A stretch of 64,000 nt of DNA from a virus. The stretch covers positions 20,079-84,078 of IMG/VR virus record IMGVR_UViG_3300017971_000026, one strand, 5' to 3'. Below the pieces are notes generated by a model. The model was not told the DNA's origin. It did not search any database and saw nothing but the letters and a program-made list of their open reading frames with translations. Shown here one piece after another: positions 44,249 through 46,108 of this stretch. Both the position numbers and the translations under genes were made by a program. The stretch's first letter is position 1. Each line of letters begins with the position of its first letter.

Positions 44249-44511
44249 GCCGTCGGCCCCATGACCGCGCGCAGCTCGTCGCCCGTCGGGAGCAGGTCAC
44301 CCGGGTCGCAGTCGAGCGCGATCGCCAGGGCGCACAGCGAGTTGAGGCTCGGGCACGTGTCGCCCTTCTCGTAGACGCAGATCGACGGACCGCTGATGAA
44401 GCAGCGCTCGGCGAGGGCGACCTGGGACATGCGCGCCTCGACCCGCCGGCGCTTGACCTCGCGACCGATCAACTCGGCGAGCGGGTAGTTCAGGACGTTC
44501 GAGCTAGCCAC
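44245..44511 (-). CDS. XRE-family helix-turn-helix regulator
   Basis: 88 residues. VKRRRVEARMSQVALAERCF followed by ISGPSICVYEKGDTCPSLNS and LCALAIALDCDPGDLLP is a canonical Cro/C1-type domain. GTG 44511 overlaps the DUF5131 stop. Second-last gene of the 46778-44189 operon and adjacent to the head operon, so it may time late expression. Confidence 0.75.
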   Translation of the reverse strand: MASSNVLNYPLAELIGREVKRRRVEARMSQVALAERCFISGPSICVYEKGDTCPSLNSLCALAIALDCDPGDLLPTGDELRAVMGPTA

Positions 44512-46108
44512 GGTCGGGCATCTCCCGCACGCGGAGATCCTCGGGCCATTCCGCAGGGTCTGCGCCCTTGCTCGAGCGAAGCTTCGGGATCCAGCCCTCG
44601 GCCGGGAACGGGTGGCCGCCGGTCTGCGCGTCCCAGTCGTGTGCCGCCTCGTTGCCGAGGTCGTCATCGGTCCGCGCGAGAGGCTTCGATCCGAGTTGCT
44701 TGACAAAACATGGAACCGACGCGGCCGCGCACTGCTCGACGATCGACCGGATCCACGCGACCTCGCACGGTCGCGCCTTGGGGCCGCCCTCTCCCCCGCA
44801 AATTATCCAAGATGGCCCCACCGATCGCCGCGCAGAATCTTCGATACCGTCTGGTGTGCGCAGCCCACAATCTCGCCGATCTTCGCCTGGGTCAGGCCTG
44901 TCTCCCGCAGCGCCCGGATCTTCCGAATATCGGCGTCGGTCAGGCGCGACGCGTTGTTCTTCGAGCCCTTCTGGCACATCTTGCCGAGCACTGATCGAGC
45001 ATGGATCAGCTGCTCGCTGTAGGTCGCGGTCTCCAGGTTCTCGGGGCGGTTGTCGTCCTTGACCCCGTTGATGTGATTGATCGTAAGGCCGGCTGGGATC
45101 GGGCCGCGGAAGTGAAGATAGACGAGCCTGTGCGCGAGGGCGTGGTGCCTGACCCGATCGAGCATCACCCTCACCTGCAAGTAGCCAGCTCCGGTCGGGT
45201 TCTCGGCTCGCCTCGGGTCGCACGGCCGGATGGTCGGAGTCGTGCCCCATCGGCTTCCCCTCCGGATAGCTATTTTCCACACTGACCCGTCGTCGCGTAT
45301 CTCCAAAAGCCCCATTCGGACCGCGTCGTAGGCCAGCTCCTCGCGATTCATCGATGCGACCATGGACTGGACTATGCCCGAGCCATTCTCCCAAGTCCAG
45401 CGGACCGAGTAGCGGCTCGCAGCTCAAGAACCGCAGCGCCGCGGGTACGCGCAGCAGCTCGGGGATCCGCTCGTCGGCGCGAGGCTGGTCCTCGACGCTC
45501 GTCCCGACCCAGATGTTTCGGCGAGGCCAATGGCCGTCGACGAGACGTTCGCCGAAATCCACGCCGTGTTCCTCGGCACAGCCAACACAGAACTCGACCT
45601 GGCCGCCGACGGGAGCGACGCTGTCCAGCCAGTCAAACCACGCGCGCGCCTTCGCCGGCCGCTTCGTCAGGCATTGAAATGTGTGCTGCGGCGTCGCGGC
45701 CATGACCCCGAAGATCGCGGCGATGAATCGGCGCCCCTCCTCGCAGTCGACGAGGCTCTCGTGGAAGATGTCGCTCAGCGAGTTGACGAACCACGTTGTC
45801 GACTTCTTGCGCTTGAGCGGGACGTCGAGTTGCCACGGGAGCAAGCGAAGCTCGCCGGTCCACTGGGCCCCCTTGCCGAGCGACTTGCCGTCGGGCGAGC
45901 GCGGCACGAAGGTCATGCCTGGTCGCTTCGCCTTGCCTCGGATCACGACGACGCCATCGCGCTCGTACACCGACTTGAAGCGGTGCGGGCTGTCGCCCTG
46001 GGCATAGCAAAAATCGCACCCGGGGCTGACCTTCGAGCATCCGACGATCGGGTTCCAGGTCTTGCCGGGCGTGCCGTCGGCGTTCTGAGTCCACTGGATC
46101 TTAGTCAT
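44504..46108 (-). CDS. DUF5131 (phage Gp37/Gp68) family protein with an in-frame insertion
   Basis: 534 codons, but only about 345 belong to the family. The N-terminal part has TWNPIVGCSKVSPGCDFCYA, a CxxC-type radical-SAM-like opening, FVNSLSDIFHE and FLSCEPLLGPLDL. The C-terminal part resumes at SWIICGGEGGPKARP and FVKQLGSK. Roughly 185 codons between them (about 45360-44813) are the shadow of the HNH gene in another frame and make no family sense. The frame stays open throughout, so either a protein with a foreign insert is made or the gene is inactive unless the insert is removed. Confidence 0.7.
   Translation of the reverse strand: MTKIQWTQNADGTPGKTWNPIVGCSKVSPGCDFCYAQGDSPHRFKSVYERDGVVVIRGKAKRPGMTFVPRSPDGKSLGKGAQWTGELRLLPWQLDVPLKRKKSTTWFVNSLSDIFHESLVDCEEGRRFIAAIFGVMAATPQHTFQCLTKRPAKARAWFDWLDSVAPVGGQVEFCVGCAEEHGVDFGERLVDGHWPRRNIWVGTSVEDQPRADERIPELLRVPAALRFLSCEPLLGPLDLGEWLGHSPVHGRIDESRGAGLRRGPNGAFGDTRRRVSVENSYPEGKPMGHDSDHPAVRPEASREPDRSWLLAGEGDARSGQAPRPRAQARLSSLPRPDPSRPYDQSHQRGQGRQPPREPGDRDLQRAADPCSISARQDVPEGLEEQRVAPDRRRYSEDPGAAGDRPDPGEDRRDCGLRTPDGIEDSARRSVGPSWIICGGEGGPKARPCEVAWIRSIVEQCAAASVPCFVKQLGSKPLARTDDDLGNEAAHDWDAQTGGHPFPAEGWIPKLRSSKGADPAEWPEDLRVREMPDRG
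44803..45363 (-). CDS. HNH homing endonuclease nested in the DUF5131 gene
   Basis: 186 residues. YLQVRVMLDRVRHHALAHRL and LTINHINGVKDDNRPENLE are the HNH_3 core. The C-terminal TDADIRKIRALRETGLTQAK, then IGEIVGCAHQTVSKIL, is a helix-turn-helix for target binding. ATG and stop coincide with the two breakpoints in the DUF5131 gene; the stop overlaps the first resumed codons. At 561 nt the gene fills the insertion, leaving no room for a group I ribozyme. Confidence 0.8.
   Translation of the reverse strand: MVASMNREELAYDAVRMGLLEIRDDGSVWKIAIRRGSRWGTTPTIRPCDPRRAENPTGAGYLQVRVMLDRVRHHALAHRLVYLHFRGPIPAGLTINHINGVKDDNRPENLETATYSEQLIHARSVLGKMCQKGSKNNASRLTDADIRKIRALRETGLTQAKIGEIVGCAHQTVSKILRGDRWGHLG

What the first reader, a model, noticed from the sequence alone, without database searches (positions are those of the whole stretch)
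44504..46108. HNH endonuclease nested in another frame inside an otherwise intact DUF5131 gene
A 561-nt HNH gene fills an insertion whose edges coincide with its own start and stop codons. There is no space for an intron ribozyme, and the host-gene frame stays open through the insert. The HNH stop codon overlaps the codons where DUF5131 similarity resumes (WII). Either a chimeric protein is made, or two genes are read in different frames from the same DNA, or a very small unknown element removes itself.
Basis: partly seen in the sequence, partly recalled or inferred. Interest (0 to 1): 0.7.

Follow-up and report, generated by a model that had tools for sequence, protein, structure and literature searches.

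The report
Homing nuclease hidden inside phage gene
A selfish DNA-cutting-enzyme gene of the homing type sits inside another phage gene in a different reading frame, and codon choice shows that the outer gene has been kept readable straight through it in ten divergent cases, so one stretch of DNA appears to encode two proteins at once.

Summary
DUF5131 (PF07505) runs 46108..44504 (-). An HNH_3 + helix-turn-helix endonuclease lies inside it in the +1 frame (45363..44803), and the DUF5131 frame stays open throughout.

It is not a one-off. I found nine more divergent copies of this HNH family nested in DUF5131 genes. Eight are at the same loop and one (L073) is in a different loop. All ten are in the +1 phase and none has a host-frame stop.

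This is selection, not chance. Synonymous codon shuffles predict about 57 host-frame stops across the ten; none is seen. HNH codons ending in T never precede AA/AG/GA (0 of 358, against 232 of 1046 elsewhere; P = 1.5e-33). Free-standing relatives show no such avoidance.

Best explanation: a homing endonuclease gene carried inside the DUF5131 frame. The host protein is translated through it and carries a 138-190 aa extra loop. The HNH is translated separately from its own internal start. I found no intron, intein or self-removing element.

The kind is known: the 'ShiLan' hidden HNH in phage DNA methylases (PMC11855218, 2025). New here are the host gene, the HNH family, the phase, the second site, the quantitative evidence for selection, and a copy whose HNH is broken while the host frame stays open.

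The parts
44504..46108 (-). DUF5131 (PF07505, Gp37/Gp68-type phage protein) ORF, 534 codons, open through the insert
   Evidence: Pfam E=2.6e-61 in two stretches; PHROG 2045; Cys triplet C24/C31/C34 and C-terminal G438/E440/G442/R446/K470 invariant in a 39-row alignment that includes all ten interrupted copies
44803..45363 (-). HNH_3 + helix-turn-helix homing-type endonuclease, 186 aa, in the +1 frame relative to DUF5131 (an alternative ATG lies at 45351)
   Evidence: HNH_3 E=2.3e-15, HTH_38 1e-5; PHROG 59 HNH endonuclease 1e-27; 43-58% identical to nine other nested copies
45382..46108 (-). N-terminal DUF5131 part, ending near '..EPLLGPLDLGEWLG'
   Evidence: alignment with uninterrupted and interrupted homologues
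44504..44809 (-). C-terminal DUF5131 part, resuming at 'WIICGGEGGPKARP'
   Evidence: alignment
44803..44809 (-). Host codons TGG-ATA-ATT (W-I-I) that supply the HNH's last codon (GGA, Gly) and its stop (TAA)
   Evidence: sequence; the same arrangement in L053, L072, L085 and, shifted by a codon, in L006
45364..45376 (-). CATAGTCCA-like stretch just upstream of the HNH ATG, similar to TATAATCCA/TATACTCCA in L080, L084, L091; possible leaderless start signal or part of the element (function not tested)

Best explanation
This is a frame-preserving, out-of-frame nested homing endonuclease gene, i.e. a ShiLan-type hidden HNH. An HNH_3+HTH endonuclease gene sits in a variable surface-type loop of DUF5131. 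It lies in the +1 phase, so the host ribosome can read through it. The host protein is made unspliced, with a disordered-looking 138-190 aa insert (shown: the frame is kept open by selection; inferred: the protein is made and works). The HNH is translated separately from an internal ATG and terminates on the host's own conserved W-V/I-I codons. Its core is conserved as in active endonucleases. It presumably spreads by cutting DUF5131 alleles without the insert and being copied in by repair (inferred, not shown). The +1 phase fits because host-frame stops then arise only where an HNH codon ending in T precedes AA, AG or GA, which synonymous changes can avoid.
For: (1) Ten divergent nested copies: window, L006, L053, L072, L080 (same sequence in four assemblies), L084, L085, L086, L091 at one site and L073 at another. 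All are +1 and all have 0 host-frame stops, against 7-22 stops in the third frame. (2) Synonymous shuffles: P(0 stops) between <5e-5 and 0.017 for each copy, about 57 stops expected and 0 seen. T-ending codons occur at 0/358 risky positions against 232/1046 elsewhere, P=1.5e-33; free-standing relatives 49/183 against 155/507, P=0.35. (3) Both flanking parts of DUF5131 stay conserved. (4) L086 has a nonsense codon in the HNH but an intact host frame. (5) Shine-Dalgarno-like sequence before the HNH ATG in L053 (AGGAGG), L085 (GGAGG) and L006, weaker in L072 and L086. (6) Same HNH family free-standing elsewhere: L074 between terminase and portal genes, L092. (7) The uninterrupted loop varies from 21 to 126 residues between EP and GGE. 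(8) Precedent: ShiLan hidden HNH, re-checked here on its sequence.
Against: No expression data of any kind. The window, L080, L084, L091 and L073 lack a clear ribosome-binding site before the HNH. The HNH tree is poorly resolved, so horizontal homing is not shown. No close uninterrupted relative was found that fixes the junction to the base.
Confidence: 0.85

Rival explanations
1. The open host frame is chance in GC-rich DNA: the HNH simply interrupted and killed DUF5131, or split it.
For: The window HNH has GC3 0.81, and chance open frames are common in this window.
Against: Ten of ten copies open, with GC down to 0.45 (L091); expected about 57 stops, seen 0; free-standing relatives carry 6-15 stops in the same frame. 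The C-terminal half stays conserved in every copy.
Confidence: 0.02
2. An RNA-level intron (group I or an unknown small self-splicing element) carries the HNH and removes itself.
For: HNH genes commonly ride in group I introns (established knowledge).
Against: No Rfam match at E<=1 in the window gene, or in L006, L053, L072, L073 near the insert. The ORF fills the insert. A spliced RNA does not need the host frame open, yet it is kept open.
Confidence: 0.03
3. An unknown protein-level excision (intein-like) removes the host-frame insert after translation; this would also need the frame kept open.
For: Consistent with the selection on the host frame.
Against: Only DUF5131 is found in the host frame. 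The host-frame insert is Arg/Ser/Pro/Gly/Glu-rich off-frame sequence. The junctions show no shared Cys/Ser/Thr and no terminal His-Asn. The loop is naturally long and variable.
Confidence: 0.05
4. The HNH is reached by programmed frameshifting from DUF5131 (N-terminal DUF5131-HNH fusion) rather than by internal initiation.
For: All copies share the +1 phase; five copies lack a clear ribosome-binding site.
Against: HNH-family proteins start with a conserved short N-terminus at an ATG; several copies have a Shine-Dalgarno-like sequence; no shared slippery site was seen at the 5' edge.
Confidence: 0.05

Closest known systems
[quoted passage not shown] also PMC9957025)
   Same: Insert inside a phage gene, host frame open, HNH in another frame with start near the 5' edge and stop at the 3' edge, no intron or intein signature, sporadic distribution.
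   Different: Host is DUF5131, not a methylase. The HNH is HNH_3+HTH in the second (+1) frame; ShiLan's is a zinc-finger-flanked HNH in the third frame. BLASTP between the two HNHs matches 16 residues of the HNH core only. Many copies across viruses and one bacterial bin, plus a second site. Selection on the host frame is measured here; I saw no such test in the sections of the paper that I read.
Pacc40 gp60 hidden HNH insertion (same paper)
   Same: Out-of-frame endonuclease-like ORF inside a methylase; free-standing relatives exist.
   Different: Different host gene; by the authors' account its HNH identity is less certain.
Genes-in-pieces NrdA split by mobE in Aeromonas phage Aeh1 (from own knowledge)
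   Same: Homing endonuclease gene inserted in a phage gene whose function is thought to be kept.
   Different: There the host is split into two polypeptides; here the host frame is unbroken.
Group I intron-encoded HNH endonucleases (e.g. I-HmuI; own knowledge)
   Same: HNH endonuclease in the middle of a phage gene.
   Different: No ribozyme found, no spare non-coding sequence, host frame kept open.

Membership tests
ShiLan-type hidden (out-of-frame) homing endonuclease insertion | Insert in a host ORF with no stop codon in the host frame | tested here: met
   0 stops in 10 of 10 copies; P=1.5e-33 for T3 avoidance
ShiLan-type hidden (out-of-frame) homing endonuclease insertion | Endonuclease encoded in a different frame, filling the insert | tested here: met
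   HNH_3 in +1 frame, 45363..44803
ShiLan-type hidden (out-of-frame) homing endonuclease insertion | No intron or intein signature | tested here: met
   Rfam negative; only DUF5131 in host frame
ShiLan-type hidden (out-of-frame) homing endonuclease insertion | Sporadic distribution among homologous host genes | tested here: met
   1 of about 30 distinct DUF5131 loci from a search with the host gene is nested (L006)
ShiLan-type hidden (out-of-frame) homing endonuclease insertion | Evidence of homing / horizontal spread | tested here: inconclusive
   HNH tree unresolved; HNH data do not reject the host grouping L072+L086 (p-AU 0.44); pairwise distances uncorrelated
HNH homing endonuclease | HNH catalytic motif plus DNA-binding domain | tested here: met
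   HNH_3 in all nine intact nested copies; HTH seen in the window and L085, absent from the shortened L053
HNH homing endonuclease | Cleaves an insert-less allele at the insertion site | not testable with these tools
   needs biochemistry
Group I intron | Catalytic RNA core | tested here: not met
   no Rfam match at E<=1
Intein | Hint/splicing domain in the host frame | tested here: not met
   Pfam scan of the full host protein finds only DUF5131
DUF5131 (PF07505) | Profile match above gathering score with conserved Cys triplet | tested here: met
   207.7 bits against cut-off 28.9; C24, C31, C34 invariant

The most novel reading that the evidence does not exclude
Out-of-frame nesting is a general third way of life for homing endonucleases, beside splicing elements (introns, inteins) and free-standing genes. 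The element spares its host gene not by removing itself but by settling in a tolerant loop in a phase whose host-frame stops can be erased by synonymous changes. It has arisen repeatedly, in different host genes (DUF5131, DNA methylases), at different sites in one host gene, and with different endonuclease types: HNH_3+HTH, zinc-finger HNH, and perhaps LAGLIDADG in mycobacteriophage DotProduct.
Probability: 0.55. Interest if true: 0.75.

Novelty: new member of a known kind. Interest (0 to 1): 0.62.

Why it matters
The only published description of this arrangement found here (ShiLan, 2025) left open whether the unbroken host frame is meaningful and how the hidden endonuclease is made. The DUF5131 set, ten divergent copies at two sites in hosts of different GC content, gives a clear answer to the first: the host frame is actively kept open, so a selfish gene and its host gene coexist by overlapping coding rather than by splicing. 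It also gives testable leads on the second, namely Shine-Dalgarno-like starts in some copies and a TATAATCCA-like stretch in others. Gene callers may report only the outer frame or only the HNH, so such elements are probably under-counted.

Tried and rejected
Chance open frame: rejected by the synonymous shuffle and the free-standing controls. Intron: rejected. Intein: nothing but DUF5131 in the host frame. Tree incongruence as proof of homing: inconclusive, the HNH tree is unresolved. Close nucleotide relatives with and without the insert to fix the junction: none in the phage collection. A search of 398 genomes of the phylum of the L053 bin for more copies found one distant match at E 2.5e-20, not followed. 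Plasmid collection: no match. PDB sequence relatives of DUF5131: none. My first family query used a wrong accession (PF18602) and is uninformative apart from identifying the record. In one search the L085 start was set five codons too early; corrected with no change in outcome.

Full report
WHAT IS THERE. The window is part of an IMG/VR virus record of 84,078 bases. On its minus strand, DUF5131 (PF07505, E=2.6e-61) spans 46108..44504 as one open frame of 534 codons. Inside it, 45363..44803 in the +1 frame encodes a 186-residue protein with an HNH_3 domain (E=2.3e-15) and a C-terminal helix-turn-helix, matching PHROG 59 'HNH endonuclease' (E=1e-27). DUF5131 similarity stops at about 'CEPLLGPLDLGEWLG' and resumes at 'WIICGGEGGPKARP'. 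The HNH's last codon and stop (GGA TAA) are read from the host's conserved codons TGG ATA ATT, one base out of step. The host gene overlaps its neighbours at both ends: ATGA at its start (46108-46105), and a GTG of a helix-turn-helix regulator at 44511 just before its TAG. This fits an intact, translated operon gene.

MORE COPIES. A search with the N-terminal DUF5131 part returned 34 loci, about 30 of them distinct. One of these, L006, carries a homologous HNH (48% identical) at the same place in the same phase, with the DUF5131 frame open. Searches with the HNH added L053 (a 3.3-kb contig of a bacterial bin labelled 'uncultured Bacillus sp.'), L072, L073, L080 (also L081-L083 from three more assemblies, identical but for one base), L084, L085, L086 and L091. 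Nine copies share one site. L073 has the HNH in a different DUF5131 loop, between 'LLSKRPQNFFTRLGLVIHWLY' and 'NIWIGTSVEDQ'. In every case the HNH is in the +1 phase. None of these searches selected for an open host frame. Pairwise HNH identities are 38-63% and host identities 36-61%, so the copies are old and divergent.

IS THE OPEN HOST FRAME MORE THAN CHANCE? In the +1 arrangement a host-frame stop arises only where an HNH codon ending in T is followed by a codon beginning AA, AG or GA. I shuffled synonymous codons within each HNH gene, keeping its protein and codon usage. Expected host-frame stops per gene were 3.3 to 9.3, about 57 in total; observed, none. Per-gene P(0) ranged from 0.0165 to below 5e-5 (L085 with corrected start). 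Pooled, T-ending codons occur at 0 of 358 risky positions and 232 of 1046 others (Fisher P=1.5e-33). Five free-standing relatives show 49 of 183 against 155 of 507 (P=0.35) and carry 6-15 stops in the same frame. The third frame of the nested copies carries 7-22 stops. So the host frame is kept open by selection on HNH codon choice. The copies share ancestry, so the pooled P is not a count of independent events, but at this divergence synonymous sites should be saturated. L086 shows which frame matters more: its HNH has a nonsense codon after residue 71 while the host frame is still intact. L053 has lost the HNH's C-terminal DNA-binding part and also keeps the host frame.

HOW IT PROBABLY WORKS. 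Shown by sequence: the host frame is constrained to be readable from end to end; both flanking parts keep the invariant DUF5131 residues, including the Cys triplet and G-E-G..R of the C-terminal part; the HNH protein is conserved. Inferred: one mRNA gives a DUF5131 protein with a 138-190 residue off-frame loop, and a separate HNH protein. The loop between the EP motif and GGES naturally varies from 21 to 126 residues in uninterrupted relatives, so a long loop is tolerable. For the HNH start, L053, L085 and L006 have a plausible Shine-Dalgarno sequence (duplex energies -10.2, -9.3, -7.4; background median -3.4, best 5% at -8.5); L072 and L086 are weaker (-6.4). The window, L080, L084 and L091 instead share a CATAGTCCA / TATAATCCA / TATACTCCA stretch just before the ATG. 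It resembles an extended -10 box for a leaderless mRNA, but this is untested and could equally be part of the element's own edge. Homing itself is inferred: the family occurs at two DUF5131 sites and free-standing (L074 between terminase and portal genes; L092), but the HNH tree is too poorly resolved to prove horizontal movement.

ALTERNATIVES. No RNA family matches the window gene at all, and none matches the inserts of L006, L053, L072 or L073 (one sub-threshold RsmY hit in L072 lies outside the gene). The host frame shows only DUF5131. RNA splicing would not need an open frame. Protein-level excision would, and remains the main formal rival, but there is no splicing domain or conserved junction chemistry. 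Frameshifting into the HNH is possible but not needed.

WHAT IS KNOWN. The arrangement was described in 2025 as the 'ShiLan domain', a hidden out-of-frame HNH in mycobacteriophage DNA methylases, with a second example in Pacc40 (PMC11855218). I re-checked ShiLan itself (JN020143): its HNH lies in the third frame and its host frame has no stop, P=0.017 by the same shuffle. The DUF5131 elements are of this kind but differ in host gene, HNH family (BLASTP matches only 16 residues of the HNH core), phase and number. No paper in the searched library mentions DUF5131, and only two mention the ShiLan domain. I therefore class the finding as a new member of a known, very recently described kind, with new quantitative support for it.

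LIMITS. All evidence is from sequence. The exact insertion junction was not resolved to the base because no close uninterrupted relative was found.

Noticed in passing
L111:686-1141 (NC_042336.1, Mycobacterium phage DotProduct gp64, DNA methyltransferase at L111:301-2292): Another out-of-frame (+1) endonuclease ORF inside a methyltransferase whose own frame stays open: 151 aa with a LAGLIDADG motif (YVAGLIDGEGCI), Pfam LAGLIDADG_1 E=0.002 (below cut-off), PHROG 5046 E=6e-40. The shuffle test is only suggestive (P=0.066).
   Followed up: partly
window 45376-45368 (-) and the matching place in L080, L084, L091: CATAGTCCA / TATAATCCA / TATACTCCA stretch just before the HNH ATG in the four copies without a Shine-Dalgarno sequence; all host third-codon positions in it are conserved. 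Possible leaderless promoter, or part of the mobile element.
   Followed up: partly
L086:2342-2842: HNH copy with one in-frame nonsense codon (after residue 71), otherwise full length; host DUF5131 frame intact. Looks like an endonuclease decaying while the host gene is kept.
   Followed up: yes
L015:2501-3877: Uninterrupted DUF5131 with a loop about 100 residues longer than usual at the same site, in frame and without an HNH gene.
   Followed up: partly
L074:2501-3007: Free-standing member of the same HNH family between large terminase and portal genes, its ATG overlapping the terminase stop codon.
   Followed up: partly
window 48552-47479 (-): ORF containing cytosine-5 DNA methyltransferase motifs (PCQPFSQAG, ENVRGLL), close to the DUF5131 gene.
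   Followed up: no
L078 (G230:C2:181133-181555): Distant relative of the HNH family in a genome of the same phylum as the L053 bin (E=2.5e-20); context not examined.
   Followed up: no
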